A DNA stretch of 42,856 nt, from the IMG/VR virus record IMGVR_UViG_3300027281_000008, positions 1 to 42,856 of that record. One strand, 5' to 3'. Positions 1-42,856 of the stretch are shown here, in pieces. Each line of letters begins with the position of its first letter. The first letter of the stretch is position 1. The position numbers were made by a program, and so were the translations under genes. The notes under the pieces were generated by a model. The model was not told the origin of the DNA and did no database searches. It worked only from the letters and a program-made list of their open reading frames with translations. The stretch comes from a virus.

Positions 1-131
1 ACCGCCAATCAATTCAATTGGTTTTCCAATGCCATATTTAAGAGCACCACCAATTAGTCTGTTTTGGATAGCCCCTGCACGGGCGGCAAGCATAGCGGCT
101 TTCTCTCCCATACCAATAGCACGAAGACCAA
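1..131. repeat. Terminal direct repeat, left copy (assembly overlap)
   Basis: Bases 1-131 match 42726-42856 with one difference (A at 127, C at 42852). The difference is synonymous (Gly GGT versus GGG) in the giant gene. The simplest reading is a circular or circularly permuted genome cut at an arbitrary place, not a packaging repeat, because the overlap lies inside a coding sequence. Confidence 0.9.
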
Positions 132-804
132 GTCCTCCAATCTTAGCAAAAGGAATAAACAACGAGGGGTCAGCAATATAACTCATTGCCTGAGTCATTT
201 CGTGGTCAATGTAATCTTTGTTGACTAACAAGGTTTTCTTTCCTTCTGCTAGGTCAATTGAATCTAAATTAAACTCTCTTGCTTCTTGATATTGCCTGTA
301 TCCCTCGTCTGAATCTTCGCCTGTTATAGCGGCTTTAAATCTAAAAAACTTGCTTGTAGGGTTTGATGATTGAGCAAGCATTCCGTACATATTTCTTGTA
401 CCTTGATAGAACGCTTCAACTCCAGAAGGTCCAAGTTTTGCCAAAGATTGCAACGGATGGTCTGCCACAGAACCAGCGGTTTTAGCAATCTGCTCAAAGA
501 TGTGAGCAACGCCTTCGCTAAGCAATCCAATGTCGTCTAAAATCCCTTTGTCTTCGTTTTTCTTCCACCCAAGATACCTAGAGAATTGACTTCTATCCAT
601 CTTGTAATATGGGTCTTTAGCCTTTTCAGCAAGTTCTTCTCCCGTAAGGGGGGCTGTAAGTCGCTTTAGAGCATCTGCTCTTTTATCCTCTGGCAAAGAG
701 TTCAGGTATTTATCTGTGTCTTCATCACCTGTGTAGCGAGTTACAGAGTTAGCACCTTCGCCCCCAAAGTACTGGGGAGATGTATCAGCGTATATATCAG
801 CCAT
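1..804 (-). CDS. Giant polyvalent-type virion protein, N-terminal part
   Basis: This is the first 268 codons of a gene that runs off the left edge and continues at 42725. The start is the ATG at 804-802, one base after the stop of the preceding gene (stop ends at 806), and it begins MADIYADTSPQYFGGEG. The reading frame stays open to base 1. Across the 131-bp terminal overlap it is in the same frame as the long ORF that ends at 33585, so the complete protein is 3,314 residues. This part is mostly charged helix, followed by a hydrophobic, Gly/Ala-rich stretch near residues 205-230. No catalytic motif is visible here. Position after the internal-virion-type genes suggests a virion protein; that is inference. 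The domain description is given with the 33585-42856 entry. Confidence 0.88.
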   Translation of the reverse strand, partial: MADIYADTSPQYFGGEGANSVTRYTGDEDTDKYLNSLPEDKRADALKRLTAPLTGEELAEKAKDPYYKMDRSQFSRYLGWKKNEDKGILDDIGLLSEGVAHIFEQIAKTAGSVADHPLQSLAKLGPSGVEAFYQGTRNMYGMLAQSSNPTSKFFRFKAAITGEDSDEGYRQYQEAREFNLDSIDLAEGKKTLLVNKDYIDHEMTQAMSYIADPSLFIPFAKIGGLGLRAIGMGEKAAMLAARAGAIQNRLIGGALKYGIGKPIELIGG

Positions 805-805
805 A

Positions 806-3800
806 TTACTTGAGGTTCTTATTACCAGTTCTTAGGGCGGCTTCAACATTTTTCTCAGCCTCTGGCTCTTTAAACATCACGGTGACACCCTTCATAGCAC
901 CTGTATTGATAAGTTGGTTCTTAAGCCGCTTTTCAATTTCATAGACTCTGCCCCAGTCGGCATCATCAAGTCTCCAGAACTCTGAGGGGTCTGGAACTGC
1001 CTTAGCAATCATAGCCTGTTCAAAGTTAGAGACAGTACCAACGCCAACGATGTCGGTTCTCATAGCGGCTTTAAGGGCGGCAATGTACACCTGAACTCTA
1101 CCGTAGGCTTCCTGACGCTTCTTACCAATAGGAATAGTGTGTAAAGGAATCTTCAAGACTTCTTTGATTCCCCTGATAGCCGCAAGACCTGATGCGTTAT
1201 TGATAGCCATTTCGTCAAACTTAGTTAAGTCGGCATCGCTTCGGTTGAACAATCCAGCAAGGAAAACGCCAGTTTCCTGTCCAACTTCTTCTGGAATCCA
1301 TCCCTTTTCTGTTTGTTGACCAAAGATTCCACGCTTAGACTCACGGACATCAGCCGTTGTCATTTGCTTGCCAGATACTTGTGCCTGTTTGAACGAGTTT
1401 CCATCCCAGAACATTGGTCCAATTTCTGTATCAATAACTTTAAAGGCTGATTCAGGATGAAGAGCCGTGTACATAGCATCAAACCCAGAAGGAATATAAC
1501 TGCGTCCTTCAGAGTCTTTGTATCTTTCCATAAGGAATGACTTAAGACGGGTTTTCTTTTCTTCTGTGGTGAGGTCTTTTGTTACCTCTCTAGTTCCAAT
1601 CGTTGTCTGAACTTCAGACATAGAAGGAAGTATATCAGCCATACCAGCACCAGCAGGAACGGTTTCGCCCATTACCTTTGCTTTAACATCTCCGTATGAA
1701 GGAGGAGTTTTCTTTAAAGATGCATAGTTCTTTTCAAGAGTTGGAATTGAAGCGTCTAGTTGTTTTATTCTAGCCTCAAGAGCCTCTTTTGCTTTTATTT
1801 TTTCAGTAACACCCCACGGCTCACCAAATGCTAGTTTGCCTACTCTACCACCAGTCCACATACTGTGTGTGCCTGTATCTTTTTGAATTTGAAGAATTGT
1901 CTTCCAAGAATCTATGTATGCTTCCGTTTCTTTAAGGTTGTTGTCAAAATGCAAACCTCCTTTAAATTGGTCTTTTTCAACAGGTCTTGTTCCACGCTTA
2001 CCTTTTTCAACTCTGTCTGTTGCTGGAGTAAAATCCCAGAAAAACGAGTCAGGAAATTGTTTATCAAACTCAGGAACAAGAAAATCTTCATCATTAGTCC
2101 AGCCGCCTGTCATATTTGTTTCAGCACCATAATAAGGTTTCCCGCCTTTAATTATTGAATCAAGATATCCTTTAAGACCTGACCTTGCTCTCTTTGATGC
2201 TTCAATTTCCTTTTCGTGTTTTCTGAGGTCAGCACCCCACGCTTCTCTTACAAGTGCGGCTTCTTCTGGGCTACTTGCTGAAGAACGCTTTAACTCAAGT
2301 CCAGCGGTAGCACCAGCAGGTCCAGCAGTTCCAGTAGTTCCAGCATCTCCTAAAACACCAGCGGCTTCTTCTTCTGTCATTTCACCTTCAATAGTTGAAC
2401 TTCCAAGAATAATGCTGTCACCAACATTTGATTTATTGCGGTCAATTCCGCTTTCCTTCATTAAATCCTCAACCTTTTTAAGAGACAGACCAAACCGTTT
2501 TGCTACCTTTGCGGCTGTGTCTCCTTTCTCAAGGTCATATCTGAGATTGCCGTCATCGCCAGCATAAGCACCTTGCTCAATTCTTCTTTGAATTCTTGCT
2601 CTTTGACCTTCAGCAGACCTAGGGTCAACATACTTAGGTTCAGGTGCAGGAAGTCCTTCAGGAGCGGCTGGAGCAGAAGCGGAAGACTCAGGAGGAGGAA
2701 GTGCATCAGCAGTTGAAGGCGTGTTTATTGTCTTAAACCATTGCTCAGGAGACATTCCATTTGATTCTGCATCTTTCTGAAGTTGCTTGTAGAACTCAGG
2801 AGCAGACACTCCGTATTCTTTAACAGCCTTTGTGAATTCAGCCTCACTAATCCCAAGAGACCTAGCATAAGCCTGAACGCTGATATCGGTTTTTCCTGCT
2901 GGCTTAGAAGTAGGCTTTGCCTCTGCCGCCTTAGACGGAGGAGGAGGTAGTGCTTCTGGGGTTCTAACAACAGGTGCTGGAGCAGGGGCTGGGGCTGGAG
3001 CGGGAGGGGGCAGGGGAATAACAGGTACAGGTGCAGGAGCAGGTACAGGTGCAGGTACAGGTGCAGTAACTACAGGAGCAGGTGCAGACGGAGGAGGAGG
3101 GAGTGCCGCTGGTACAGGTGCTGGAGCAGGGACTGAGGCTGAAGGAGGTGGAGGTACAACTACAGGTGCTGGAGCAGACGGAGCAACAGCAGTTGGAATT
3201 GAATCAGGAAGCATATCACTAGGATATTCTTGATTAACCTCAACACGGATAAGACCACGCTCTGTATTTACATATCTAGCAACAGAACCTCTGTTAATTC
3301 TTCCAGTAATTTTTCCATCCTCAAACCTAAGTACATCAATGCCTTTACTTGGTGAAGGAAGGTTAATGGAAACAGGCTTACCACTTGCATCTGTAACAAC
3401 TGTCTTTGTACTTAGGAAGTCCTTAGTTGTCATTCCAGAACGCTCTACATCACCAGCGTATGGCGTTGCTCCAGAAAGTTCAGCGGTTAGTTTTTCCTGA
3501 AGAGCGTAAATCTGGTCAAGGACACCACCTCTTATTTGGTAAGATTGCTCAGGACTAAGCCCTTCAAACGCACCGTCAGCGGCATTATTTTTGACATCTT
3601 CAAGCCAGTTGTAAATTGCGTCATTGTCGTCTCCTGTGAACCCAGCCTTTCTTGCATTAGAAAGTTGTTCTCTGAATGCATTATAGTTTTCTATCCCGCT
3701 GATGTTTGGATTCCATTTGGTTTTAGCAATCGCTGGCTTTTGTCCAACCAGTCTATTGTTACCCATTTCCGTTTCGCCTTGACCAATGTCTCGTCTTAAC

Positions 3801-4204
3801 TGGTTTGCTCGCATCGTATCGTACATCTTGATGGAGTTACCGAAGTCATTGAATGCAACTTCAGCACCAGCAAGAAGTCCTAACTTTTTAGGAAGAGCAA
3901 GTTCAGGAATCTTCTTAAGTTTTTCAATCTGAGGAAGAAGAATCTGGTCAGCGTACTTAGCGTACTCAGGGTCTTTACTAAGCATCCCGTAGTAACCTTG
4001 AAGTTGCTGTGCCATCTGTCCAGCCTTGGCGTTAACTAAATCTGCCTTACCTTGGTTTTCATTGTAGGTAGCAATCCCGTTAGCAAGAGCATTGCCAAAG
4101 TTCTGCAATCCAGATTGTGAAAATTGACCTATCTGAGCACCAGCCTGAATAATTCCCTGAACTGGCTGGATTCCATTTTGATATTGAGAAAAAGATGAAG
4201 CCAT
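806..4204 (-). CDS. Large internal virion-like protein with proline-rich linker and LysM-like motif
   Basis: A protein of 1,132 residues. The N-terminus (about 1-150) is Gln/Ala/Gly-rich helix. Residues about 338-425 are a low-complexity Pro/Ala/Val linker with repeated LPPPPS and PAPAPV units. Residues about 555-600 look like a LysM module (GDTAAKVAKRFGLS ... VGDSIIL), which in known families binds peptidoglycan or chitin. The C-terminal half is charged and mostly helical, without a motif I recognise. It lies between a Gln/Ala-rich virion-type protein and the giant protein. That is the place where podoviruses keep internal (ejected) proteins, so a role in crossing the cell wall during DNA entry is a reasonable inference. 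The start is the ATG at 4204, three bases after the previous gene's stop. Confidence 0.75.
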   Translation of the reverse strand: MASSFSQYQNGIQPVQGIIQAGAQIGQFSQSGLQNFGNALANGIATYNENQGKADLVNAKAGQMAQQLQGYYGMLSKDPEYAKYADQILLPQIEKLKKIPELALPKKLGLLAGAEVAFNDFGNSIKMYDTMRANQLRRDIGQGETEMGNNRLVGQKPAIAKTKWNPNISGIENYNAFREQLSNARKAGFTGDDNDAIYNWLEDVKNNAADGAFEGLSPEQSYQIRGGVLDQIYALQEKLTAELSGATPYAGDVERSGMTTKDFLSTKTVVTDASGKPVSINLPSPSKGIDVLRFEDGKITGRINRGSVARYVNTERGLIRVEVNQEYPSDMLPDSIPTAVAPSAPAPVVVPPPPSASVPAPAPVPAALPPPPSAPAPVVTAPVPAPVPAPAPVPVIPLPPPAPAPAPAPAPVVRTPEALPPPPSKAAEAKPTSKPAGKTDISVQAYARSLGISEAEFTKAVKEYGVSAPEFYKQLQKDAESNGMSPEQWFKTINTPSTADALPPPESSASAPAAPEGLPAPEPKYVDPRSAEGQRARIQRRIEQGAYAGDDGNLRYDLEKGDTAAKVAKRFGLSLKKVEDLMKESGIDRNKSNVGDSIILGSSTIEGEMTEEEAAGVLGDAGTTGTAGPAGATAGLELKRSSASSPEEAALVREAWGADLRKHEKEIEASKRARSGLKGYLDSIIKGGKPYYGAETNMTGGWTNDEDFLVPEFDKQFPDSFFWDFTPATDRVEKGKRGTRPVEKDQFKGGLHFDNNLKETEAYIDSWKTILQIQKDTGTHSMWTGGRVGKLAFGEPWGVTEKIKAKEALEARIKQLDASIPTLEKNYASLKKTPPSYGDVKAKVMGETVPAGAGMADILPSMSEVQTTIGTREVTKDLTTEEKKTRLKSFLMERYKDSEGRSYIPSGFDAMYTALHPESAFKVIDTEIGPMFWDGNSFKQAQVSGKQMTTADVRESKRGIFGQQTEKGWIPEEVGQETGVFLAGLFNRSDADLTKFDEMAINNASGLAAIRGIKEVLKIPLHTIPIGKKRQEAYGRVQVYIAALKAAMRTDIVGVGTVSNFEQAMIAKAVPDPSEFWRLDDADWGRVYEIEKRLKNQLINTGAMKGVTVMFKEPEAEKNVEAALRTGNKNLK

Positions 4205-4207
4205 AAA

Positions 4208-5107
4208 TTATGAAGCAAGGTTAGCGTTTTCAAGATATCCTTTACCAAGAGAACCAGCCATACCCATAAGCCCAGCAGACCAACCTGCTTGAGCCTGTTG
4301 ATTAGCGATTGCTGTTTGAGTGTTGTTGGACTGGTTAGCACCATAGATTCCAGCGTTGTACTGAGATTCAGGTGTAAACAATTTAGCACCAAGTCCACCA
4401 TAAAGAGTGCCAGCACCTTGAACTAAAGAAACAGGTGACATCTGGTTAAGTGATGCCATAAGAGGTTGACCGTACATAGCATTAGCCGACTGGGTTTGAG
4501 CCAATCCAGCCGCATACATCCCTCCACCAAACTGTCTAGCCCTATCTTCACGGGCTTGACCAAGTTGATAAGAGTTCATAACTTCTTGAGCAACAGCCTG
4601 ATTGCCAGAAAGACCTCTAGCCGCCATAGCCTGTCTAGCAGATTGCTGGGCGAACTGTTCCATCTGAGGGGTAAGCCCACGACCAGCATTAAGGTCGTTC
4701 ATAGCAGATTGTTGCATAGATGCATAAATGCCCCTTGTACCTGAGTCAAGAGATTGCTGGTAGTTCTGCATAGCCGTTTGACCAACCTGATTATAGATAC
4801 CGCCCTGCATTCCAAGATAATCGCTCTGAAGCCCACCAGACATCCTTCCTGCCTCACCGTACAGGCTTCCAAGACTTCCAAGAGAACCACTAAGTCCTTG
4901 TTGTTGCAAGCGTTGATATTGAGGTGTGTATTGACCTTCTAAACCAATAAGGTCACCTTGAATCTGTCCTTGTGAACGCAAAGCATCTTGCATTTCTCCA
5001 AGGTAAGAGCGTTGTGCTGGTGCTTTTATGTTTTTAGGTTTAGATAATGCTCCAGCCGCAGTTCCAGCAAGCGAAGACCACGCCAATACTTCTAGTCCTG
5101 TTCCCAT
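4208..5107 (-). CDS. Internal virion-type protein, Gln/Ala/Gly-rich
   Basis: 299 residues rich in Gln, Ala, Gly, Tyr and Met. The N-terminus (GLEVLAWSSLAGTAAGALS) is hydrophobic. Residues about 35-200 contain many QQ, MQ and YG pairs and should be helical. No enzyme motif is seen. Size, composition and position just before the LysM-like protein and the giant protein resemble the small internal core/ejection proteins of podoviruses (T7 gp14 position). I infer the role from order and composition, not from a recognised family. The start is the ATG at 5107, one base after the stop of the upstream gene. Confidence 0.6.
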   Translation of the reverse strand: MGTGLEVLAWSSLAGTAAGALSKPKNIKAPAQRSYLGEMQDALRSQGQIQGDLIGLEGQYTPQYQRLQQQGLSGSLGSLGSLYGEAGRMSGGLQSDYLGMQGGIYNQVGQTAMQNYQQSLDSGTRGIYASMQQSAMNDLNAGRGLTPQMEQFAQQSARQAMAARGLSGNQAVAQEVMNSYQLGQAREDRARQFGGGMYAAGLAQTQSANAMYGQPLMASLNQMSPVSLVQGAGTLYGGLGAKLFTPESQYNAGIYGANQSNNTQTAIANQQAQAGWSAGLMGMAGSLGKGYLENANLAS

Positions 5108-19071: not shown

Positions 19072-19144
19072 TGGGCGTGAAGGGAATCGAACCCTCGACT
19101 TAAGCCTTATAAAGACTCCACTCTAACCGCTGAGTTACACGCCC
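19072..19144 (-). tRNA. tRNA-Ile (TAT)
   Basis: Acceptor GGGCGTG/CACGCCC, anticodon loop TTTATAA with anticodon TAT, reading the AUA codon. Bacteria usually read AUA with a modified CAU tRNA, so a direct TAT tRNA is noteworthy. CCA is not encoded. Confidence 0.9.
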
Positions 19145-19149
19145 GAAAG

Positions 19150-19222
19150 TACGGCAAGCGGGGGTCGAACCCGCAACATCCTGCTTGGAAAGCAGACACT
19201 CTGCCAATTGAGTTACTGCCGT
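19150..19222 (-). tRNA. tRNA-Gly (TCC)
   Basis: Acceptor ACGGCAG/TTGCCGT, anticodon stem TCTGC/GCAGG, loop TTTCCAA with anticodon TCC (reads GGA), T-arm GCGGG/CCCGC. Confidence 0.93.
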
Positions 19223-19227
19223 GAAGG

Positions 19228-19300
19228 TGGGACTGACTGGACTTGAACCAGCAACAAATCGCTTAAAAGGCGACTACTCTAACCATTGAGTTACAATCCC
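19228..19300 (-). tRNA. tRNA-Lys (TTT)
   Basis: Acceptor GGGATTG/CAGTCCC, anticodon loop CTTTTAA with anticodon TTT (reads AAA). Normal D-arm and T-arm. Confidence 0.93.
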
Positions 19301-19305
19301 TAAAG

Positions 19306-19376
19306 AACCCTGACAGGGATTTGAACCCCGACAAGGAGTACCAAAAACTCCTGTGCTACCGTTACACCATCAGGGT
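19306..19376 (-). tRNA. tRNA-Gln (TTG)
   Basis: Acceptor ACCCTGA/TCAGGGT, anticodon stem GGAGT/ACTCC, loop TTTTGGT with anticodon TTG (reads CAA). Confidence 0.92.
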
Positions 19377-19380
19377 AGAA

Positions 19381-19446
19381 GGACGCATAAGAGGAACTTT
19401 AACCTCTTTCCTCCGATAAACGGAATTCAACTTAAACTAATGCGTC
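19381..19446 (-). tRNA. Aberrant tRNA-like element (66 nt)
   Basis: It has a perfect 7-bp acceptor (GACGCAT/ATGCGTC), a central hairpin TTCCG-TTTAT-CGGAG and a T-arm-like hairpin AAGAGG/CCTCTT with an 8-nt loop TTAAAGTT. The D-arm is reduced and lacks the GG pair, and the T-loop has A where C56 is expected. With a 7-nt loop, the anticodon would be TTA, but the geometry is poor, so I assign no amino acid. It lies in the array in the same orientation as its neighbours. Confidence 0.55.
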
Positions 19447-19450
19447 AAAA

Positions 19451-19522
19451 TCGACCCACTAGGAATCGAACCTAGATGACCCGCTTAGAAGGCGGGTGTT
19501 CTATCCGTTGAACTATAGGTCG
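19451..19522 (-). tRNA. tRNA-Arg (TCT)
   Basis: Acceptor CGACCTA/TGGGTCG, anticodon stem CCCGC/GCGGG, loop CTTCTAA with anticodon TCT (reads AGA), T-arm CTAGG/CCTAG. Confidence 0.93.
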
Positions 19523-19529
19523 TAAAAGG

Positions 19530-19644
19530 GCGGGGGAGGGGAGTCTAACCCCTCGTACTATATTCAGAACTTCCTATGACCGTGTTTTAAACCATTGAAC
19601 CATTGGTTCTGCTAATAATGTACTCGTAACAAAAACGACCCCGC
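19530..19644 (-). ncRNA. Extended tRNA-like element (about 115 nt)
   Basis: The ends pair as an acceptor (GCGGGG/CCCCGC). A D-arm-like hairpin TCGT/ACGA and a strong T-arm-like hairpin GAGGGG-TTAGACT-CCCCTC follow. In place of an anticodon arm there is a long interrupted helix (GTAC/GTAC, TATT/AATA, CAGAAC/GTTCTG) around a 35-nt internal region. The T-loop has A instead of C56 and the D-loop has no GG. It could be a tRNA with an insertion, a tmRNA-like tRNA mimic, or a decayed gene. Confidence 0.5.
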
Positions 19645-19650
19645 AAAGTA

Positions 19651-19722
19651 AGCCTTGTGTAGGATTTGAACCTACGACCTTCTGTTTACAAAACAGACGC
19701 ACTACCGCTGTGCTAACAAGGC
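19651..19722 (-). tRNA. tRNA-Thr (TGT)
   Basis: Acceptor GCCTTGT/ACAAGGC, anticodon stem TCTGT/ACAGA, loop TTTGTAA with anticodon TGT (reads ACA). It is the first tRNA of the array in transcription order. Confidence 0.93.
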
Positions 19723-20825: not shown

Positions 20826-21680
20826 TTATGCCGTGACCTCCGTTTCTGGTTCGGTGACTGCTACGCCCTTGAACTTCGTCCAGCGTTTGAACGCTTCGCT
20901 GGCGGCTTTCTGGATTAGCGTCTTGTCGTTGGAGAGCACCTTGAGCCAGTTGCCAAGGTAGGCACTAGAGTTATCGAACACGGTGGTAGCGAGCAGACCA
21001 GTATCGTTCAGGCAGATGCTGGAGAACAGTTCTGCGACCAGTTCTTCCTTAGCGTATTCCTTTGAGCCGAAGCCGTCAGTCGAGTGTGTGCCACGCTCCT
21101 TGAGCGAGTGACCGATTTCGTGGAACAGCGTTGCGTAGTATTGCTCAACGCTCTTGAACGATTCCTTCCGTGGCATTTCAATCGTGTGGAAGATTGGAGA
21201 GTAGGAAGCGGATGTGCCACCGTGCGTCACGCCTACCGTGTTCAGAGCCGCCAGTTTTTCAGCCGCTTCGATTGGGGTGAACACGATTTGCTTGTTCGCT
21301 CGCTTGAAGTCAGGGAGGTTGCACTTGTTCACGGGGAAGACCGTGTAGTAGCGAGCGAGCAGGAAGGTGTCAGCAGAGCCGTTGACCTTCGTCTTTTTCT
21401 TGTCTTCGACCTTAGCGAAGTAGGTGATGGGCAGACCTTTCGTTCCCGCTTCCAGTTGACCTCCGAGAGCCTTGATTTGGTTGAAGGTCAGGTAGTAGTC
21501 GTCAGAACCCCAGAAGGCGAGGGTGAAGGCGTTCACCCCAGAGTAGGGCTTGCGGCTCACGCCATTCTGAGGCGAGACGGATGCCCAAGGCTTCTGCCAA
21601 GGTGCGACTCCGTTCTGGAGGCTGATGATGAAACGGTCAGCGATTACATCGGCTACCGTGATTTTGGTGGGCTGGTTCAT
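20826..21680 (-). CDS. ArdC-like antirestriction protein / zinc peptidase
   Basis: 284 residues from the ATG at 21680; the frame is open 14 codons further, but ATG with the leader CCAAAAACCAA is preferred. The N-terminus (DRFIISLQNGVAPWQKPW, 15-32) is the ssDNA-binding region of the ArdC family. The C-terminal half has the zincin motif HEIGH (187-191) with E217 in EELVAE as the likely third zinc ligand. ArdC-type proteins protect incoming DNA against restriction early after entry. It is transcribed away from the main early genes, from the 940-bp control region. Confidence 0.85.
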   Translation of the reverse strand: MNQPTKITVADVIADRFIISLQNGVAPWQKPWASVSPQNGVSRKPYSGVNAFTLAFWGSDDYYLTFNQIKALGGQLEAGTKGLPITYFAKVEDKKKTKVNGSADTFLLARYYTVFPVNKCNLPDFKRANKQIVFTPIEAAEKLAALNTVGVTHGGTSASYSPIFHTIEMPRKESFKSVEQYYATLFHEIGHSLKERGTHSTDGFGSKEYAKEELVAELFSSICLNDTGLLATTVFDNSSAYLGNWLKVLSNDKTLIQKAASEAFKRWTKFKGVAVTEPETEVTA

Positions 21681-21726
21681 TTGGTTTTTGGTTTTGTAGG
21701 TGTCGTCAGGCGACTCACACACCCTA

Positions 21727-32561: not shown

Positions 32562-32761
32562 GATTACTCTTCATTCTCTTTTGCGTCTGCTTCGTCTTTG
32601 AGGCTGTCCTTTTTGTAGCGATTCTTAATACTTTTAATAAAGACGAAAAGAAGTCCTGTTGCTACAACTGCAAGACTTGTGCCGACAATCCAAGCAAACC
32701 ATTGGCTGTCAAAAATCCAGAGGCTACCCATAGCCAAAGCACCGCCACCCATCAGAATTAA
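32558..32761 (+). CDS. Doubtful membrane-protein ORF antisense to spanin candidate
   Basis: 67 residues: hydrophobic N-terminus (LLFILFCVCFVFEAVLFVAI), Cys-rich middle (CCYNCKTC) and a polar tail. ATGA overlap with the preceding gene is in its favour. However, it lies almost wholly antisense to the C-terminal part of the 32564-33283 gene, whose charged tail would by itself create a hydrophobic reverse frame. Most likely a shadow. Confidence 0.25.
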   Translation: MRLLFILFCVCFVFEAVLFVAILNTFNKDEKKSCCYNCKTCADNPSKPLAVKNPEATHSQSTATHQN

Positions 32762-33283
32762 CCCCTTGGTCTTCCAAGGCGTAAAGGCAATTACTGTTAG
32801 TCCTGCAACAAACAACCCCAGCCCTGTGGTACTAAACTGCCATAGGGCTTTCTCTTTTAAAGCAACTTGACGCTCTTTCTCCGCATTGTCGGCTATGGCT
32901 TGGGCGATAGCAATGGCGTTCTCCTTCTCTTCTACCAAAGCCCACAGGTCGCTAGTCTCAGAATCAATCTTCAACGCTTCTTCTTTGTCCTTCTTGACCG
33001 CCTTGTGGTCTTTTGATTCGACCATCCGTCTAAAAGATTCAACTCGTTCTTGCTTTGGCTTGCTGACCCCGCTGAGTCTTGCGACTTGCCCTTCAACGAG
33101 TTCTCTAGCAATCCCATCAGGAATGGCAGGAGCGACAGCAGTAAGGGCAGAAGCCGCTTCAGAAACGATTCCTTCGATTTTGTCAATGTATAGGTCTTTC
33201 TCCTTGTTGTTGATTATTACTGGAGCAATTGGCTCTTGGGTTGCACATCCGCATAAAAATATTGATGCTATTATATATCTCAT
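32564..33283 (-). CDS. Candidate unimolecular spanin-like lipoprotein
   Basis: 239 residues. The N-terminus (IIASIFLCGCATQ) has a lipobox-like LCGC, so the protein may be anchored in the outer membrane. Residues about 40-140 are charged coiled coil. Three hydrophobic segments follow near 146-166, 173-190 and 194-215, then a charged tail. Outer-membrane lipoprotein at one end and membrane helices at the other is the plan of u-spanins, which disrupt the outer membrane at lysis. It directly follows the holin (ATGA overlap). The three membrane segments instead of one are unusual. Confidence 0.6.
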   Translation of the reverse strand: MRYIIASIFLCGCATQEPIAPVIINNKEKDLYIDKIEGIVSEAASALTAVAPAIPDGIARELVEGQVARLSGVSKPKQERVESFRRMVESKDHKAVKKDKEEALKIDSETSDLWALVEEKENAIAIAQAIADNAEKERQVALKEKALWQFSTTGLGLFVAGLTVIAFTPWKTKGLILMGGGALAMGSLWIFDSQWFAWIVGTSLAVVATGLLFVFIKSIKNRYKKDSLKDEADAKENEE

Positions 33284-33584: not shown

Positions 33585-36500
33585 TCAGTTCCTCAATGCT
33601 CGTTTTTTGGCTTCTTGTTCAGAAGCGTAGATGCCGACTTGAACTTTCTGGGAGTTATAGACCTTGAACTTGTCTCCTTGAATCATAATGATGTATCCGT
33701 TGATAGCCTGTAATACCTTTCCATTAGGTGCGACTTTCTCCGCAAAATTTTCTTTTACGCTGTAATTAGCGTTCATATCCCTATAATCTACCTGACCAAC
33801 ATCCTTGGTTCTGGTTGCACCGTAAGGGTTGCTGTTCATACCAAGCAGGTTTGTCTGCACATTACTTGGAAGGTCTGAAAGTTTACGCTCACCAGAGTTA
33901 GCAGAGATAGATGTTTCGTGCAGGTCTAGGACATTGATAGGTCTCTTGAGCAACAGAATCTCAGGCTTCTGCCCGTTCTTTTGAACAATACCTGTGTTAT
34001 AAGACCTGTGACCAGAGTCCATAGATTCTACAAAGTCATTGAATTTTATAATGCCGTAGACATCTCCAGACTTAAGTCCTTTTGTAAGGCTATCTGTAAG
34101 CGTGTTGCCCATTGTGCTCTTGAGGTTAGCAAGCGTGAACGCTCCTGCCGTTTTAGAGCCATCCCATTCAGGGAAGAACCGCATAACTTCCTGCTTCTTC
34201 TTATCGCTAAGACCTTTCATAACTCTGTCCCACACAGCACCCATAAAGTCGTCTATCATAGGTGCTCTTGTGCCAAAGTTCTGAATGCTACTGTCTTCAA
34301 GGGTAAGCATCACGCTGGCAATCAACTCATCATAATTCATCTTGTTGTCCTTAACAATCTTCCTGAGTGCATCAGTCTGCTTGTTCTCAATTACAACTTC
34401 CCCAGTTTTTTTGTCCTTATGCGTGGTAACTTTTTCAACGGCTTCAGCCATCGCAATGCGAAGGTCTTTTTCGGAGACAATCTTACCACGCTTAAAGATG
34501 TCAAAAACATTGTAGTAGAACTCAGAGCCTTGAACTGACGCTCTAGCCTTCTCGTAAGATGTGAAGGTCAGAGGCATAATTGCTGTAACACCTTTGCCCG
34601 CATCTTTGTTTGCCTGTACAGCGTTGTTAGTTAGGTTGACAAACCCTTCACCTTGCGATGCCCAAGCCGCATTGCTTCCTCTTTCAGCCTGAAGCATAGG
34701 GTAAGGAAGACCTCCAGCACCCTCAGCAACCACCCTGCCTTCGGCTGTGGTGATGTCTGTACCCGTAAGGGTATCAGGAGCGTGGCTGATTGCCCTAAGC
34801 CCTCTGAGGTCATTTAAATCCTCAGCGGTGGCGTACCTGACAAAGCCTCCAGCCGATGCCATAGCCTTCTTGAACCAAGGCATATCCTCAGACTTACGGA
34901 GGACAAGCATATCCCTTTCGTTCAGGGAGTACCATTTGTCAGATTGAATCTTGCTCCAAGCGTACACCCAGAGTTCGTGACCCTTATGCTTCTCGATATT
35001 GACCGTGCCGTCAGCCTCAGTATTATGAATCTCCATCTCAGGATACTTCAGTTTATTGAAGTTATCCATAGTGGCTGGCATATACTGCCCCGTGTATTGG
35101 TCTAGGAGTTTAGAGTAGTTCTCTCCGAATGTCCTGACCTGTGACTTCAGCGGAAGACCTAGGTCGTTTTCAATACGCTGGAAGAAGTCCGTAGCACCCA
35201 TTGCTCTGGCTCGTTCAGCGGCTTCAGAGTACAGCAGGTGCTGGTAATTCTTACCTCGGTATGCAGGTTCAACGCTGACGCTAGGGTCTGAGAAAATCTT
35301 TCTGCCATCCTTTGCTCCAATCTGAGTCTTCCAAGTGATGTGACCAACCTCTTTACCAGCCTCAGTAATCTGAAGGTAGTGGTTGTGTGTGCTCTTACCC
35401 GCAACCCTTCCAGCCATCACAGCCATACCTCTGCTTGCACTAGCCTTTTCGGTTTCAAATGTAAGTTTAAGTTCTTTTGACATCTCAGGGTTCTCAGCCG
35501 CATAGCGTCCAATGAATCCCTTCTTCCATTTCAGGCTTTTTTGGTTATAGGTTTGACCGCCCTTGTCGTTTTCGTTGACAGAAAAATGAATAGGAAGTTG
35601 GTCTTTTATACCATAGCCTCTTTGAGCCTTAACTTTTTGACTAGCACCAAACAGATAAGCGTCTATGTGGTCAGCGGGAACGCCAAGTGAACTAGCAACA
35701 GTATCTTTATAGAAATTAGCATCAGACATATCAGAGATAGGCTGTTTATAATCACTAGAAATAGACAGTTTACCTTTCTCAAGTAAATTTCCTTTCTCAT
35801 CGTACTTTGGCTTTTCATATCTGCCGTAGATATTAGGTCTATCGTCATCATATTTAAATTTATCAAACCATTCGCTATGCGTAAAATCTGGTCTGTCCAA
35901 TTCCCACATTGGGTTTTTCATTCTAACACCTTCGTTGTCTTTCCAATACCAAAGACCGCTGTTCTTTGCTTCCCAAATATTATCTGCTTTTGTTTTTCCT
36001 GTTTGCGGGTAGTGACCAATGTCTTCCCATCCAACATTGTCTGGATTTGTTTTGCTACCCCTAGCGTCTGGATTTCCAGTAATTTCATCATTTCCAACGC
36101 TAACTCTGCGAACTAATAATCCTTGTTCATCTTTTGATTCAAAGATGTTTTTCTTTGGTTTGTAGTAATCATCTCCTCCTTGGTAGTCGCTAGGGCTGTA
36201 GTATTTTGTGTCCCTGCTTTCTCTTTCAGCCCCAGTATTGGAGCGTCTAGCGTCCGTGTCCGATACCTTACGCTTATTGCCCATTACTTCTTGAACACGC
36301 TTGGCAAGTTGTTTTCTTGTATTCCTGATATTGTTCAATTCGTAATTATAAGTGTAGTAGTCTCCTTGCTTCTGAAGTTTTTTTGTAGCCTCTGTCAGAC
36401 TTGTTCTTCCTTCTACGACATCGCTATAGATTTGCTTTGAAACGCTGTCGCTTCTAGAAGCCTTTTCTAAGGCAATCATCATATCGTCTTTGCTGGCTGA

Positions 36501-39500
36501 TGTAAATACATCGAGGTTGTCAGCAATGTCTTTTACGCTTTGAGGCATCTCAACCTCGTGCCAAGATTTGACTGAACCTCTTAGTTCACTAAGCCAAGAA
36601 TTAAGTTCAGTTAAAGAAGAACTGCTTTGAATTCTGCCTTTAAGTTCTTTCTCCTCTGGGCTGTAGTAAGCGTTCCTATCAAGAGTACTTCTGGTTACAT
36701 CGTAGTAACCGCCATTACCAAGGCTCTCTGCGTTCCCAATGGTACGCATACGGGCGTGGTAAGGTCTGTTCTCTGGGTCAATGATAACTCCATCAAGATA
36801 CTTAACGCCCTGAGAGCGTAGTCTTTCTGCGGCTTCAGACAGCAAAACATTATTAAGTTTCTTGCCACGCATTGACTCAGCAACGCCTGTGCTTTCTACG
36901 GATGCCTTGTTTCCGTCTACATTAATGTGTATGTTAGCAATGAAGTTAGGCTTTCCGCTTTTGTGAAACCCTTGTTTAACCTCAAGAGTAAATCCGTATT
37001 GAGGGTCACCAACAGAACGATGTGTGTTTTTGAATTCAACTGTCATTCCCTTTGGAAGCGTATCCTTGTTGTCGTTAAAATACTTCCCGATAAATGTTCT
37101 TTGAAATGCGTGACCAAAAGGGTCGTAGCGTCTTCCACCACGGCTATCCGTTTCAGCAACGCTATAGGATGTCATAGCCTTTCCGCTCATAAAGTCGGCT
37201 TTTATTTTGTCGTTAAGTACGATGTGGTTTCCTCTGGCAAGACCCATAGCGGTGATGATTTCATCACGGGACATTATTTGTTTTCCGTTTGCTTGAGCCT
37301 GAGCATCCATAATGCTATTTTGCAGTTCCTCAAAGGCTTTGCTTTCAGCCATTTTAACATTCACAGCCTCAACATAAGCGTCATAGAACTCCTTAGGAAT
37401 TTCTCCATTTTTTACTCTTTTATCTAGTGCTTTAGTTGTCGTATTGACCAGTTGCTTAAAATCTTCTTGTCCTTGTCTTGGAGTGGTGACTTCGTGAATG
37501 GCTCTGGAAAGACTCCCTGAGATGTACTCGACATTTCTAGCGTCAAGTTTTCCAGCCTTGCCTTGTTCATACATATCAAGAACAAGTTTATTGGCATCAA
37601 ACGAACCGTCAGATGCATTAGACAAAGTCTCAAACAGTTTTTTAATTTCAGGGTTTCCAGCGACATCAAGACCCTTAAGGAATCTTTCTGTAGAGCCGTA
37701 CTTCTGAATCTTGATTCCGTATTTGGCAAGGAAACCGCCCCAGATTTCAGGAAGTGCTTTTCCATACAATCCTGTACGAGAAATATATTTCATCTGAGAC
37801 ACAGTAGGAGCATCGTCAGGATGAGTAAGGACAAGGGTGTTTATTCCCTTTCTGATAGATTCTACAATCAGGGATTTTAAAGCAACCAAGGTTCTTTCGT
37901 TGATGACTTCAAGAGGGTAGGCTTTTTTGTTCTTCATAGCCTCTTCGTGCTTAATGAACTCTCTGTCAATTGCTTCTATATTGCGACTTAGTGTGTGAGG
38001 AGATGCGGCTTCAAGTTCAACTAAATCAACGGTTTTATTGGTGTTTCCTTCATTCTTTCTTTTCTCAAGAATTCGTTTCTTGATTTCACCGTACACTTCC
38101 GCTTGCTGTTTTGCTGTTCTGTAAATCAAAGAATCTTTTTCTACAAACTCTTTGTTAACGGCATCTAGAACATTCCATAAAGCACGGCTATGACCTCCGT
38201 AAAGTGTATTATTGGGGTCTATCAAAGAACCGTGATAAGCCCTGTAAGCATCATAGGTGTCAAAAATATGAAGTCTTCCTTGGCTTGCATAATTAGGAAC
38301 AGGATTTGGGTTAGACCTTTTGACATCGGCGGTTTCCCACGCAGTTTCCGCAATAGCAGAAGATGTGTCAGTATAAATTCTGCTTATGAATTCAGCAATT
38401 GTTCTAGGACCACCAATTGAAGCAGGATTAAATCTCTGATTAGCATAGAACACCTTACCATCGCTCATCTGAAGTCTTAATCCAGCATCTTGGGCGTTAT
38501 TGAAATCGCTGTATCCGTCTTGATAATATTTAATGTTGTGGTCTACAAATTGGTCCGCTATGTTTTTTAGAATGTCAGGTTGTTTTAGAATCTCAAGCAG
38601 GTGGGTACGAGTTACATTTTCGTGAGATGCGTCTTTAGGTGTATGCGGACGAAGTCCAGTTGGGTCTCTTCTAAGACCAATGTCTGCATTACTTATGGCA
38701 AACATTTGCATATATTGGTTTACAATAAGGTCTGGATTCCTTTCAATAAATTTAGCAACTTCAAGTGCAATTTTTCTTGCTTCTTTTTCTTTTGCTGTAA
38801 CCTTTTTAGATGTAGTGTTTCTTCCTTGTCCAGTTCTTTGGTTGTCAGAAAGATAACTAATCAGCGGAATTGAAGTGCCAAAGCCCTCGTCATAAAATGC
38901 ACCATTTTTAAGGGCTTCAAGAACTCGTTCTCTTTCCTTAAGGTCTGGGTATTTGTTTACAAGTTCTTGAAGCCCTTGAAGTTTTTTAACTAAATCTGTT
39001 CTTTGTTCTGTCAGAATTTTTTGAGATTCTTTATTCAAAGCACCTTGAGGAAGAATGCTTTCACTATTGTTAGATTGAATTTCCTCTATGTATAGGTATT
39101 TGTTTCCTTCGGAATCGAATCTTACTGTTGTTCTTGTGTGAACAACTACATCAGGTCCGTAGTGACCTCTTACTCCGTGATGATATTGAGACTGTTCAAT
39201 TCTAATAGGCGTTTCAGTATACTCGCCTTTAGTTCCACCAAATACATAATTCTCAGTCTGCAATCCTCCAAGTTCTTTAGCACCAGTATCAATCCTAAGC
39301 GACAAGCCATTGTTCTTAAGAAAATCTGTGATTTCCTTTGGGTCTAATACGGACATATTTTCTCCCTTAGGTGTAGCAATTGGAGAATGTTCCTGTCCTC
39401 TCGGAAGAATGCCACCAGTAGCCGCATCGTACCTGCGTGTTAATCTGTATGTAGGTTGAATCTTAGACTCAAGCCAATCAACAAATCCAACAGCCTCAGC

Positions 39501-42500
39501 CTCAGCCCATAGACGCTCTCCAGTTCTAGAGCCGTACTGAAGCAATCGCTTACGCAGTTGCTGAGGAGTCATATTAGGTGTATCTCTAAGCATCACCTGA
39601 ATTCTGTCATTAAGAGCAGAACGGAAGGTCATAGGATAAATCTTATCCCATCCCTTCATATGAGCATCTATGCCACCAATACGCATACTCATCCAAGCCT
39701 GACCGCCAGAATTAGAGCCAAAAGAACCGTCAAGTCTTGCAGGGATTCCAGCGTGTTGAATTAGGGTTACCGAATCTTCTGAAAACAAATCTGCCTTAGA
39801 ATCAATCTTTTCCAAAATCTTTGGAATCAATTCCATTTTATTTCTGATTCCGTTGAGAAATCTAGGGTCTACTTGAGGATTATTAATCTTTGCGTTGTAT
39901 TCTTCAGTAAGACTTCTTAGCATCTCAACATATTCAGCACGAAACTTTCCTGCAAATCCTCTTGCGTGAAGTTCTTCTGTTGCTTTTTGTCTTCCGTACT
40001 CTTCTCTAGGGCTGAAGTGAACACCACGGTCATAAGCCGCCTTAACATCCTGAGCAACTTCGTGCATAGCCTGTTGTTGCTTCTGGAGTTTCTGCTTACC
40101 AGCAAGCATAGCCTGTTCTGGCGTTGCGTATGAACCAATACGCTCACCTCGTCTGTCGTAGGCAACGACCTCGCCATCAAGAATCTGATGGAATCTGTAG
40201 CCAGTTTTGTGCTCCCAATGCTTACCATTAGGGGCTTCCCTGTAGGTCATCTCAGCAGGTGAGAAGTTTCTGCCGATGTCTGGGATTGCATTCTTGGGGT
40301 CAAAGCCAAGAACCTTTTCTCCAGTTAGTCGGATGTCCTGCATTCTTCCAATTGAAAGCATCGTGTAGGCGTTCAAAGCATCGTAGTAGATTTCGCCAAT
40401 AGGATGATTAACATAGACATCGCCAGCACCAAGGGGAACGCCAGCAACTTGATGCATAACATCTCTTCTCTTTCCTCCATTGCCGTCTCCGTTGTCCAAC
40501 AGGATAGATGACTCAACCTTTCCACCAGCAACATCTTTACCCATATTGGTTATATACTTGATGTAGTCGGCTTCAAACAGCATAACATCTCCGTTCCATA
40601 GGTCTCTTACCGAAGGATTAGACCACATATTTTTCGCCCTCTCGCTATTAACCCTGAGGTCAAGGGTGTGTGCAACCATTGAGACCTTACCATTCTTGCC
40701 AACCTTTATGTCAACGCTAAGAAGAACACCAAGTCTGTTTGTGAAAGGAACTTCGTCTCCAGTAATTCTTGGTACATTTGGTCCAGTTTCTACCGTGTGC
40801 GTAGCACCCCAGTATCCAGACTCAAAAACTGATTTGTCTGGATTCATAGCAAGAGCCTGAAGAGTTTTAATCTTCTGACCCATAGCAGGTGAGATATGCC
40901 CAGCACGAATAAGTCCAGCAACATCCTTGTCAGACAAGTGACCAACTAGATTGCCAGCACCGTCTGTTTGTCTTGCTGGGTCAATGGCTAGAAGTTCAGC
41001 GTGAACAGCCTTGCCTAGTTGCAAGTCGTTAGAGAGACTTGTTTTCTTTCTAGGGTCTCTAGCCCCTCTTGCTCTACCAAGGTCGTCAAGACCTTTTCTG
41101 AGGATAAGTTCTCCTCTGGCTTTATCAGACATCAAGGTCAGGTCAATTCGTCCAGTTCTGTTTTGATTCTGAGTCATCTTCAAGAAGTCAGAAATCATAT
41201 AGTCAATAGAGCCTACCCTGATTCGCTTCCCGCTACTGTCTCTGAAGGATTCAGACAATGACCTGCCTTGTTTAAACGAAAACCGTGGGTCAAGGGCAGA
41301 GCGTTTGTTTTCAAAGTGGTCAATAAATCTATTAACCGTTCTGTCCATTACTCCACGAAGACCTTCGTACTTACCAGCAAAGAATAAGAAGTCGGGTGGT
41401 TTAGCACCAACGAGTTCTTGGAAATAATACGCACCGAACTCTTCAGTAAGGTGTTCAAGTAAAGGCTTTTTGCTATTTACCGTAGCCTCAGTCAATGTGG
41501 CTTGACCTGTCTTTTCGTACTCATCAACAGCCCTATCAGCAAGGTCTGACAAACGCTTTGCTTCGGCGGCGTGTCCAGTAGGGTCAATGCTTTTATCAAC
41601 CTTGTTGTATGTACGCTTCATATACTCCCTAAAGAAAGCCTTACTTTCATCTGGGTTGATAGAACCGCCTTCAAGGAGTTTACCTGTTGCGTCTCTTACG
41701 CCAAGAAGGTCGTGCTTGAGGTTCTCAATAAAGTGCGGAGTCATAACCGCCTTACGAAGAATTAAGTGAAGCATTTCGTGTGGAACTGTTCCAGCACGGA
41801 ATCCAGATTTAGCACCCTTTGAAAGTTTAGTGGTGTTGATGTGCATTGTTACCTGACCATCAGCGGCTGTTTCCATCACAACGCCTTCCATATTGATGTG
41901 CTCAAACTGAGAAAGTTGTTTTGGTTTTGTAGGGTCTGTTTTATGTATACCAGTTTTCCTATCAAATCCGTTATCATCTAAGAACTTAGTGTGGTTAGCG
42001 TCATTTCTGAATTGAAATCTAGAGTCAGGAGCAAGACCGTCAAAGGCGACAACAATGCCATCCATCATCGGCTTAGTTCCTGTCATCTCTCCAATCTTTC
42101 TGAATAATTCATAGGCTTGAGCAGTATGATGTTTCCCTGTTTCCTTAGCACCCTCAATGGCGTACTTAGCCATTATGTCTGCTCGTTCAATGGTCTTAGC
42201 ACCTGTGGCTCTAGAGAGAAGCCCACCAGCAAGTCCACCAACGCCACCAAGAGCAATGCCAGCCCCAGCACCCTGCCACATACCTTCAAGACCGTTATTG
42301 CCGTAGCCAAGCCCGCCACCAATGACAGCACCGTAAGCCGCACCTTTTGTTATGTCAGCAGACAATGAGAGAAGCGGGTCAGCGGCATTAATTACCTTAA
42401 GCAAGTTCTGTGCAGAAGGGGAAAGAATAGCCTTGTCAGCCTCAAGAGCCGCCTTAGCATAAGAAAGGAATCCTCTTGGACCTCTTTGTATTTGACCACC

Positions 42501-42856
42501 AATAGCACTAAGTGCTTGACCAACACCGTGTGCAACACCTCCAGCAACATAAGCATTGGAGATGTCAGAAACAATAGGAACAGAGTGTCCAGCAAGAGAT
42601 GCCGCACTAGTTCCTAACGAACCCATACGGACGGTCTGACCAATTTCTCTAGCAGACATACCAGTTACAGTTTCTGCCGCCAATGAACCTGCGTTGATTC
42701 CGTAATCAATAACTCCTCTTGTTGCACCGCCAATCAATTCAATTGGTTTTCCAATGCCATATTTAAGAGCACCACCAATTAGTCTGTTTTGGATAGCCCC
42801 TGCACGGGCGGCAAGCATAGCGGCTTTCTCTCCCATACCAATAGCACGAAGCCCAA
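33585..42856 (-). CDS. Giant polyvalent-type virion protein, main part (C-terminal 3,090 residues)
   Basis: This continues the gene from 804-1; the full protein has 3,314 residues (numbering below is for the full protein). Near 220-420 it is Gly/Ala-rich and hydrophobic. A zincin motif HEMLH lies at 584-588. At about 1438-1488 the pattern HGVRGHYGP ... YIEEIQSN, with a later YISRTGLYGKALPE near 1910, matches a domain repeatedly found in phage 'polyvalent' proteins. Two related ~160-residue units (about 2123-2275 and 2646-2810) each contain a GNAT-like acetyltransferase core (RGKKLNN and RGKNYQH, then SEAAERLR/SEAAERAR). A short GY...VGxYAxxEQA module occurs near 1108-1147 and again at the C-terminus. 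A GGLPYP ... AWAS block near 2930-2975 is also typical of polyvalent proteins. Such proteins are thought to enter the host with the DNA and act on host defences; that role is inferred here. Confidence 0.85.
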   Translation of the reverse strand, partial: GLRAIGMGEKAAMLAARAGAIQNRLIGGALKYGIGKPIELIGGATRGVIDYGINAGSLAAETVTGMSAREIGQTVRMGSLGTSAASLAGHSVPIVSDISNAYVAGGVAHGVGQALSAIGGQIQRGPRGFLSYAKAALEADKAILSPSAQNLLKVINAADPLLSLSADITKGAAYGAVIGGGLGYGNNGLEGMWQGAGAGIALGGVGGLAGGLLSRATGAKTIERADIMAKYAIEGAKETGKHHTAQAYELFRKIGEMTGTKPMMDGIVVAFDGLAPDSRFQFRNDANHTKFLDDNGFDRKTGIHKTDPTKPKQLSQFEHINMEGVVMETAADGQVTMHINTTKLSKGAKSGFRAGTVPHEMLHLILRKAVMTPHFIENLKHDLLGVRDATGKLLEGGSINPDESKAFFREYMKRTYNKVDKSIDPTGHAAEAKRLSDLADRAVDEYEKTGQATLTEATVNSKKPLLEHLTEEFGAYYFQELVGAKPPDFLFFAGKYEGLRGVMDRTVNRFIDHFENKRSALDPRFSFKQGRSLSESFRDSSGKRIRVGSIDYMISDFLKMTQNQNRTGRIDLTLMSDKARGELILRKGLDDLGRARGARDPRKKTSLSNDLQLGKAVHAELLAIDPARQTDGAGNLVGHLSDKDVAGLIRAGHISPAMGQKIKTLQALAMNPDKSVFESGYWGATHTVETGPNVPRITGDEVPFTNRLGVLLSVDIKVGKNGKVSMVAHTLDLRVNSERAKNMWSNPSVRDLWNGDVMLFEADYIKYITNMGKDVAGGKVESSILLDNGDGNGGKRRDVMHQVAGVPLGAGDVYVNHPIGEIYYDALNAYTMLSIGRMQDIRLTGEKVLGFDPKNAIPDIGRNFSPAEMTYREAPNGKHWEHKTGYRFHQILDGEVVAYDRRGERIGSYATPEQAMLAGKQKLQKQQQAMHEVAQDVKAAYDRGVHFSPREEYGRQKATEELHARGFAGKFRAEYVEMLRSLTEEYNAKINNPQVDPRFLNGIRNKMELIPKILEKIDSKADLFSEDSVTLIQHAGIPARLDGSFGSNSGGQAWMSMRIGGIDAHMKGWDKIYPMTFRSALNDRIQVMLRDTPNMTPQQLRKRLLQYGSRTGERLWAEAEAVGFVDWLESKIQPTYRLTRRYDAATGGILPRGQEHSPIATPKGENMSVLDPKEITDFLKNNGLSLRIDTGAKELGGLQTENYVFGGTKGEYTETPIRIEQSQYHHGVRGHYGPDVVVHTRTTVRFDSEGNKYLYIEEIQSNNSESILPQGALNKESQKILTEQRTDLVKKLQGLQELVNKYPDLKERERVLEALKNGAFYDEGFGTSIPLISYLSDNQRTGQGRNTTSKKVTAKEKEARKIALEVAKFIERNPDLIVNQYMQMFAISNADIGLRRDPTGLRPHTPKDASHENVTRTHLLEILKQPDILKNIADQFVDHNIKYYQDGYSDFNNAQDAGLRLQMSDGKVFYANQRFNPASIGGPRTIAEFISRIYTDTSSAIAETAWETADVKRSNPNPVPNYASQGRLHIFDTYDAYRAYHGSLIDPNNTLYGGHSRALWNVLDAVNKEFVEKDSLIYRTAKQQAEVYGEIKKRILEKRKNEGNTNKTVDLVELEAASPHTLSRNIEAIDREFIKHEEAMKNKKAYPLEVINERTLVALKSLIVESIRKGINTLVLTHPDDAPTVSQMKYISRTGLYGKALPEIWGGFLAKYGIKIQKYGSTERFLKGLDVAGNPEIKKLFETLSNASDGSFDANKLVLDMYEQGKAGKLDARNVEYISGSLSRAIHEVTTPRQGQEDFKQLVNTTTKALDKRVKNGEIPKEFYDAYVEAVNVKMAESKAFEELQNSIMDAQAQANGKQIMSRDEIITAMGLARGNHIVLNDKIKADFMSGKAMTSYSVAETDSRGGRRYDPFGHAFQRTFIGKYFNDNKDTLPKGMTVEFKNTHRSVGDPQYGFTLEVKQGFHKSGKPNFIANIHINVDGNKASVESTGVAESMRGKKLNNVLLSEAAERLRSQGVKYLDGVIIDPENRPYHARMRTIGNAESLGNGGYYDVTRSTLDRNAYYSPEEKELKGRIQSSSSLTELNSWLSELRGSVKSWHEVEMPQSVKDIADNLDVFTSASKDDMMIALEKASRSDSVSKQIYSDVVEGRTSLTEATKKLQKQGDYYTYNYELNNIRNTRKQLAKRVQEVMGNKRKVSDTDARRSNTGAERESRDTKYYSPSDYQGGDDYYKPKKNIFESKDEQGLLVRRVSVGNDEITGNPDARGSKTNPDNVGWEDIGHYPQTGKTKADNIWEAKNSGLWYWKDNEGVRMKNPMWELDRPDFTHSEWFDKFKYDDDRPNIYGRYEKPKYDEKGNLLEKGKLSISSDYKQPISDMSDANFYKDTVASSLGVPADHIDAYLFGASQKVKAQRGYGIKDQLPIHFSVNENDKGGQTYNQKSLKWKKGFIGRYAAENPEMSKELKLTFETEKASASRGMAVMAGRVAGKSTHNHYLQITEAGKEVGHITWKTQIGAKDGRKIFSDPSVSVEPAYRGKNYQHLLYSEAAERARAMGATDFFQRIENDLGLPLKSQVRTFGENYSKLLDQYTGQYMPATMDNFNKLKYPEMEIHNTEADGTVNIEKHKGHELWVYAWSKIQSDKWYSLNERDMLVLRKSEDMPWFKKAMASAGGFVRYATAEDLNDLRGLRAISHAPDTLTGTDITTAEGRVVAEGAGGLPYPMLQAERGSNAAWASQGEGFVNLTNNAVQANKDAGKGVTAIMPLTFTSYEKARASVQGSEFYYNVFDIFKRGKIVSEKDLRIAMAEAVEKVTTHKDKKTGEVVIENKQTDALRKIVKDNKMNYDELIASVMLTLEDSSIQNFGTRAPMIDDFMGAVWDRVMKGLSDKKKQEVMRFFPEWDGSKTAGAFTLANLKSTMGNTLTDSLTKGLKSGDVYGIIKFNDFVESMDSGHRSYNTGIVQKNGQKPEILLLKRPINVLDLHETSISANSGERKLSDLPSNVQTNLLGMNSNPYGATRTKDVGQVDYRDMNANYSVKENFAEKVAPNGKVLQAINGYIIMIQGDKFKVYNSQKVQVGIYASEQEAKKRALRN
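42726..42856. repeat. Terminal direct repeat, right copy (assembly overlap)
   Basis: Second copy of bases 1-131, with C at 42852 instead of A at 127. Removing one copy joins the two halves of the giant gene in frame. Confidence 0.9.

What the first reader, a model, noticed from the sequence alone, without database searches (positions are those of the whole stretch)
33585..42856. Giant injected-type protein with zincin, two GNAT-like units and polyvalent-protein modules
At 23% of the genome this single protein carries several probable enzymatic modules. Polyvalent proteins (a class described for phages and conjugative elements) combine peptidases, acetyltransferases and unknown domains and are thought to be delivered with DNA. 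The order HEMLH, EIQS domain, GNAT, GNAT, C-terminal repeat may be a multi-purpose anti-defence effector. The acetyltransferases could modify host proteins, or toxins such as those that act on tRNAs.
Basis: partly seen in the sequence, partly recalled or inferred. Interest (0 to 1): 0.85.

Follow-up and report, generated by a model that had tools for sequence, protein, structure and literature searches.

The report
Giant phage protein with swappable cargo
A freshwater bacterial virus carries one 3,314-residue protein, probably injected into the host with its DNA, in which a fixed front half with a likely metal-dependent protease is followed by interchangeable enzyme-like modules (here two acetyltransferase-like ones), always enclosed between two copies of a small tag.

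Summary
The gene is on the minus strand and runs across the record's ends, which repeat (131 bp): it starts at 804, not 42836, and encodes 3,314 aa (23.3% of a 42,725-bp circle). Contigs L002 and L007 carry it uninterrupted. The GNAT units are confirmed (related to each other; Pfam; AlphaFold/Foldseek hits GNAT-fold). HExxH plus a distal EEFGxYY is near-invariant across very diverged relatives and sits in a zincin-like helix order, but PDB fold search did not confirm a zincin. The EIQS unit is real, of unknown fold, and always paired with a second module. The 'C-terminal repeat' is a ~50-aa tag: all 46 complete relatives have exactly two copies, one straight after the protease core and one at the C-terminus, enclosing a cassette with 25 module orders. 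The protein is the third, largest gene of a conserved trio in the T7 gp14-gp15-gp16 position, with an invariant glycine-rich hairpin. Best reading: an ejected polyvalent protein, a new variant of a known class. Anti-defence and tRNA-toxin roles have no evidence. Both GNAT copies here have atypical acetyl-CoA loops but are under purifying selection.

The parts
1..804 (-).
   Evidence: 131-bp terminal repeat; uninterrupted 3,314-aa ORF in L002 and L007
33585..42725 (-). Rest of the giant gene, residues 269-3314 plus stop; bases 42726-42856 repeat window 1-131
42225..42344 (-). Glycine-zipper hairpin, residues 396-435; G400, G408, G416, G420, G422, G424, G428, G431 identical in all 24 aligned relatives; likely membrane-inserting
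41310..42065 (-). Zincin-like metallopeptidase core, residues 489-740
41766..41780 (-). HEMLH (HExxH), residues 584-588
41424..41444 (-). EEFGAYY, residues 696-702; candidate third zinc ligand (Glu)
40095..40241 (-). Tag copy 1, residues 1097-1145, directly after the core
38934..39665 (-). EIQS module, residues 1289-1532 (H/R/E-rich conserved motif; fold unknown)
37341..38126 (-). M4 module, residues 1802-2063; always the next recognised module after EIQS (18 of 18)
36657..37127 (-). GNAT unit 1, residues 2135-2291; loop RGKKLN
   Evidence: Pfam PF00583 3.5e-5
35580..36293 (-). M5 module, residues 2413-2650, unknown
35043..35549 (-). GNAT unit 2, residues 2661-2829; loop RGKNYQ; GNAT fold in the model
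33777..34934 (-). M6 module, residues 2866-3251, unknown, present in 21 of 46 relatives
33588..33731 (-). Tag copy 2 at the extreme C-terminus, residues 3267-3314
806..4204 (-). Upstream partner, 1,132 aa (gp15-like position; 729-1,397 aa in relatives)
4208..5107 (-). Upstream partner, 299 aa (gp14-like position; well conserved, 274-376 aa in relatives)

Best explanation
It is the largest of three ejection (internal virion) proteins of a podovirus-like phage, and also a polyvalent effector. Proposed mechanism: the 299-aa and 1,132-aa partners build a channel; the giant protein leaves the head with the DNA; its glycine-rich N-terminal hairpin inserts into the inner membrane; the zincin then works inside the cell, most likely cutting the chain near the two tags so that the enclosed modules (EIQS+M4, GNAT, M5, GNAT, M6) are freed in the cytoplasm, where the GNAT units bind or acetylate host proteins. 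Shown here: the full gene, the gene order, the module architecture, the tag bracketing, the GNAT fold, the invariance of HExxH/EEFGxYY, purifying selection. Inferred: packaging, injection, membrane insertion, zinc binding, self-cleavage and all substrates. My probabilities: ejected polyvalent protein about 0.75; zincin an active peptidase about 0.65; self-cleavage that frees the cassette about 0.35; GNAT units acting on host proteins about 0.35; anti-defence purpose about 0.25.
For: Full gene. Gene order head closure - g381 - g299 - g1132 - giant - g100 - 239-aa gene on one strand in nearly all relatives long enough to tell; ejection genes are described as a small operon gp14-gp15-larger gp16 with gp14 constant and gp15/gp16 variable in size (PMC8954989). 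N4's giant vRNAP is a comparable ejected ~3,500-aa protein with an HExxH domain (PMC12633501). Glycine hairpin. HExxH and EEFGxYY; an independent tag-seeded search found 10 further complete members, all with HExxH. Model: strands, HExxH helix 93-105, Glu-bearing helix 202-221. GNAT. 46 of 46 complete members have exactly two tags and 25 module orders. ART-PolyVal in relatives. Polyvalent-named structural neighbours. dN/dS.
Against: No virion proteomics. Foldseek of the 1,200-residue model (mean pLDDT 65) found no PDB zincin, and profile comparison with the ArdC MPTase-PolyVal matched only 18 columns round HExxH at 13.5% probability. g299 and g1132 have no detectable similarity to solved ejection proteins. 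Both GNAT copies lack the usual loop glycines. No cleavage site is known; the tags could instead be docking or packaging signals. In this particular protein tag 1 is diverged: a terminal-tag-only profile did not report it.
Confidence: 0.6

Rival explanations
1. It is mainly a structural ejection protein. The modules are non-catalytic binding domains that line or brace the conduit, and the tags dock it to the portal, the core stack or its partners.
For: Ejection-operon position; atypical loops in both GNAT copies here and in about half of the 40 GNAT units in the family (19 of 40 keep both small residues); tags at fixed places in 46 of 46.
Against: Module content and order vary far more than a structural part would need (25 orders; GNAT 0-3 copies), and some relatives carry bona fide enzyme families (ART-PolyVal, Methyltransf_23).
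Confidence: 0.22
2. The zincin is an effector that cuts host proteins; there is no self-processing and the giant chain stays whole, as reported for N4 vRNAP packaging.
For: N4 vRNAP is packaged unprocessed although it has an HExxH domain (PMC5512222).
Against: The tag bracket directly after the protease core would then need another reason.
Confidence: 0.25
3. It is not packaged: a late-made intracellular host-takeover or superinfection protein.
For: No direct packaging data exist; nothing found here excludes it.
Against: Constant place inside the structural and lysis region, next to two smaller partners; glycine-zipper N-terminus.
Confidence: 0.1

Closest known systems
Phage polyvalent proteins (Iyer et al. 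2017, PMC5512222)
   Same: Large multidomain protein near virion genes; zincin-like MPTase hub; RimI-type GNAT, ART in relatives; shuffled, duplicated modules.
   Different: Core, EIQS, M4, M5 and M6 are not matched by Pfam or PHROGs where tested; constant N-terminal chassis plus a cassette bracketed by two homologous tags. Searching that paper's text for repeats, duplications, flanking and packaging signals showed no such bracket.
N4 virion RNA polymerase gp50 and schitovirus ejection operon (PMC12633501)
   Same: ~3,500-aa protein in a three-gene ejection operon, likely membrane-spanning N-terminus, HExxH domain.
   Different: No RNA polymerase found here; HExxH comes before the cargo instead of after it; no sequence similarity detected.
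T7 gp14-gp15-gp16 ejection proteins (PMC8954989)
   Same: Gene order and size pattern.
   Different: No detectable sequence similarity; giant is 2-3 times larger than gp16; no lysozyme/transglycosylase found in it.
uncultured Caudovirales phage proteins A0A6J5MBV1, A0A6J5R0Z9, A0A6J7W8Y5 (BFVD)
   Same: Predicted folds match the core region at E 1e-38 to 1e-21; the last is named large polyvalent protein, A0A6J5R0Z9 NAT_SF.
   Different: Not characterised; no function assigned beyond names.

Membership tests
Phage polyvalent protein | Several domains of unrelated activity in one polypeptide | tested here: met
   Two GNAT units plus HExxH core plus EIQS/M4/M5/M6; ART in relatives
Phage polyvalent protein | Encoded beside virion genes of a portal-terminase phage | tested here: met
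   Same strand and order as portal (13261-15468), SU10_MCP-type capsid (PF17236 4.9e-49), head closure
Phage polyvalent protein | Delivered into the host with DNA | not testable with these tools
   Only gene order and the glycine hairpin point to it
Zincin metallopeptidase | HExxH in a helix, third Glu ligand in a later helix, preceding strands | tested here: met
   Invariant in the aligned relatives; predicted helices 93-105 and 202-221, strands 16-20, 61-65, 72-77. The family search was partly seeded on these motifs; 10 members found by tag alone also have HExxH
Zincin metallopeptidase | Zincin fold match to solved structures | tested here: inconclusive
   No PDB hit below E 0.28 with the long model; hhalign to MPTase-PolyVal 13.5%, 18 columns
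GNAT superfamily | GNAT fold | tested here: met
   Foldseek: the listed PDB hits are overwhelmingly GNAT enzymes, probability 0.93-1.00; Pfam PF00583 in 24 of 40 units
GNAT superfamily | Acetyl-CoA loop R/Q-x-x-G-x-G/A | tested here: not met
   RGKKLN and RGKNYQ in this protein; met in 19 of 40 family units. Some active GNATs depart from it (own knowledge), so this does not exclude the fold or activity
T7-type ejection operon | Small, middle, large gene in a row after head-tail genes | tested here: met
   299, 1132, 3314 aa; conserved
T7-type ejection operon | Sequence similarity to known ejection proteins | tested here: not met
   Profiles of g299, g1132 and the giant's N-terminus found no ejection protein in the PDB
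N4-type vRNAP | Single-subunit RNA polymerase domain | tested here: not met
   No such family in Pfam, NCBIfam or PHROGs for residues 232-3314

The most novel reading that the evidence does not exclude
A phage 'cargo rack': a fixed ejection-plus-protease chassis with a two-tag docking site between which effector modules are exchanged, the resident zincin recognising the tags and releasing each phage's own effector set into the host, comparable in logic to polymorphic toxins.
Probability: 0.3. Interest if true: 0.8.

Novelty: new variant of a known kind. Interest (0 to 1): 0.55.

Why it matters
Polyvalent proteins were predicted to be processed by their own metallopeptidases so that unlike activities act at once, but where the cuts lie is unknown. 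A family with a constant chassis, one protease and two fixed tags round a variable cassette gives concrete cut sites or docking sites to test, and a natural catalogue of what freshwater phages choose to inject. No relative was found among 50,697 deposited phage records or, by one pattern search, in 84,980 bacterial and archaeal species genomes.

Tried and rejected
Named relatives: tblastn of the giant protein, of three of its slices and of two diverged relatives' N-terminal 1,200-1,300 aa against 50,697 phage records gave nothing. Phage C75C1, the best portal relative (28.6%), has an unrelated giant protein in the same place. Genome-contig search with the zincin profile: 12 pattern matches, none confirmed, so no host. 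EIQS and M6 profiles: no credible Pfam or PDB match; the pentatricopeptide hits for M6 cover 32 columns of repeat proteins and were discounted. Gasdermin-B hits to the N-terminus (E 0.008-0.06) judged chance. A faint SPOR-domain (DamX) hit for the tag at E 0.15 was not pursued. Weak NCBIfam hits (DnaX, 2-isopropylmalate synthase; E 0.015-0.06) rejected. Alignment A4 placed GNAT-2 fragments on GNAT-1 and was replaced by A7 for folding.

Full report
What is there. The window is a 42,856-base virus record. Its first and last 131 bases are the same apart from one base, so the molecule was assembled as a circle of about 42,725 bp. The joined gene is 9,945 bp, 3,314 aa, 23.3% of the circle. Two independent metagenome contigs, L002 and L007, carry the whole gene without a break (1 and 5 residue differences), so this is not an artefact of joining. 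All residue numbers below refer to the 3,314-aa protein.

A large family. A search seeded on the HExxH region returned 55 loci. A second search, seeded only on the C-terminal tag, returned 73. None of the giant-protein queries tried finds a relative among deposited phage genomes, but uncultured-phage proteins in BFVD are clear structural neighbours of the core region, and several bear the names 'large polyvalent protein associated domain', 'ART-PolyVal-like' or 'NAT_SF'.

Architecture. Module profiles built from the family show one plan: N-terminal domain (1-520), zincin-like core (525-1095), tag 1 (1097-1145), a variable cassette, and tag 2 at the very C-terminus (3267-3314). Of 50 sequences with both N-terminal domain and core, 46 have the terminal tag and the other four are cut off by contig ends. 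All 46 have exactly two tags, the first directly after the core. The cassette shows 25 different module orders, from none of the recognised modules to six; proteins range from 2,259 to 3,591 aa. GNAT units occur 0-3 times (29 of 46 members have at least one), ART in 9, M6 in 21, and EIQS is followed by M4 as next recognised module in 18 of 18, so these two are probably one split unit. A profile of terminal tags alone (without this protein) finds 51 non-terminal matches, 44 of them at the inner position, though only 20 at E 0.001 or better and not the inner tag of this protein itself; a core profile that spans the inner tag matches this protein's C-terminus at 2.3e-5. More distant relatives (L087-L089) keep the HExxH region but not the full plan.

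The zincin. HExxH and EEFGxYY are invariant in the alignment of 38 members, most of them about 28-36% identical to this protein. Because the first search used these motifs as seeds, the fair test is the tag-seeded search: 10 further distinct complete members all have HExxH at the expected place, several with a changed EEFG motif. The AlphaFold model puts HEMLH in helix 93-105 of the slice and the EE pair in helix 202-221, after three strands, the order described for polyvalent MPTases (PMC5512222). But the long model had moderate confidence (mean pLDDT 65), Foldseek found no PDB zincin, and profile comparison with the MPTase-PolyVal of this phage's own ArdC-like gene matched only 18 columns round HExxH (13.5% probability; control comparisons 0.2% and 0.1%). 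I call it a likely, not a proven, zincin.

The GNAT units. GNAT 1 passes the Pfam threshold (PF00583, 24.5 bits against 20.7); GNAT 1 and 2 are related to each other (7e-8 pairwise) and match a family profile built without them at about 1e-39. The model of residues 2640-3314 (mean pLDDT 75) has GNAT-fold enzymes as its best PDB matches. In both copies the acetyl-CoA loop lacks the usual glycines (RGKKLN, RGKNYQ). RGxKL is a recurring subtype in diverged phages, 19 of 40 family units keep both small residues, and dN/dS of this protein's copies is 0.14-0.29 (GNAT 1) and 0.04-0.05 (GNAT 2). They are maintained; whether they acetylate anything is open.

Delivery. The gene order head closure, 381-aa, 299-aa, 1,132-aa, giant, 100-aa, 239-aa, all on one strand, is conserved in nearly all relatives with enough flanking DNA. 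The middle gene varies from 729 to 1,397 aa while the small one stays at 274-376 aa. That is the pattern described for podovirus ejection operons (PMC8954989); N4's ejected vRNAP shows that a ~3,500-aa protein with an HExxH domain can be delivered (PMC12633501). Residues 396-435 hold a glycine-zipper hairpin, eight of whose glycines are identical in all 24 aligned members. Profiles of the two partners and of the giant's N-terminus found no known ejection protein. Packaging is thus inferred.

Verdict. The kind is known (polyvalent proteins); the fixed chassis with a two-tag bracket round an exchangeable cassette is, as far as I could find, not described.

Noticed in passing
window 20826-21722 (-): ArdC-like anti-restriction gene: ArdcN (3.9e-21) plus MPTase-PolyVal (4.5e-29), 298 aa. 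A second, separate polyvalent-type zincin in the same phage.
   Followed up: partly
window 18980-19722 (-): Array of seven tRNA genes (Ser, Ile, Gly, Lys, Gln, Arg, Thr) in a 43-kb phage.
   Followed up: no
window 1-131 and 42726-42856: Terminal direct repeat with one synonymous mismatch; close contigs L002, L003, L004 and L007 carry the C variant, so the two ends of the record differ by a strain variant or an assembly error.
   Followed up: partly
window 32564-33283 (-): 239-aa protein with lipobox-like start (LCGC) and hydrophobic stretches, downstream of the giant gene in most relatives; holin/spanin candidate, not tested.
   Followed up: no
L042 residues about 2408-2582; also L043, L054, L060, L066, L068, L075, L076, L151: Relatives carry an ADP-ribosyltransferase of the ART-PolyVal family in the same cassette.
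   Followed up: partly
L087 7079-20540: A diverged relative with an open frame of at least 4,487 aa, cut by the contig end.
   Followed up: no
L096 (OQ984151.1) 38751-7576: Phage C75C1 has a 2,769-aa protein in the corresponding place with no detectable similarity.
   Followed up: yes
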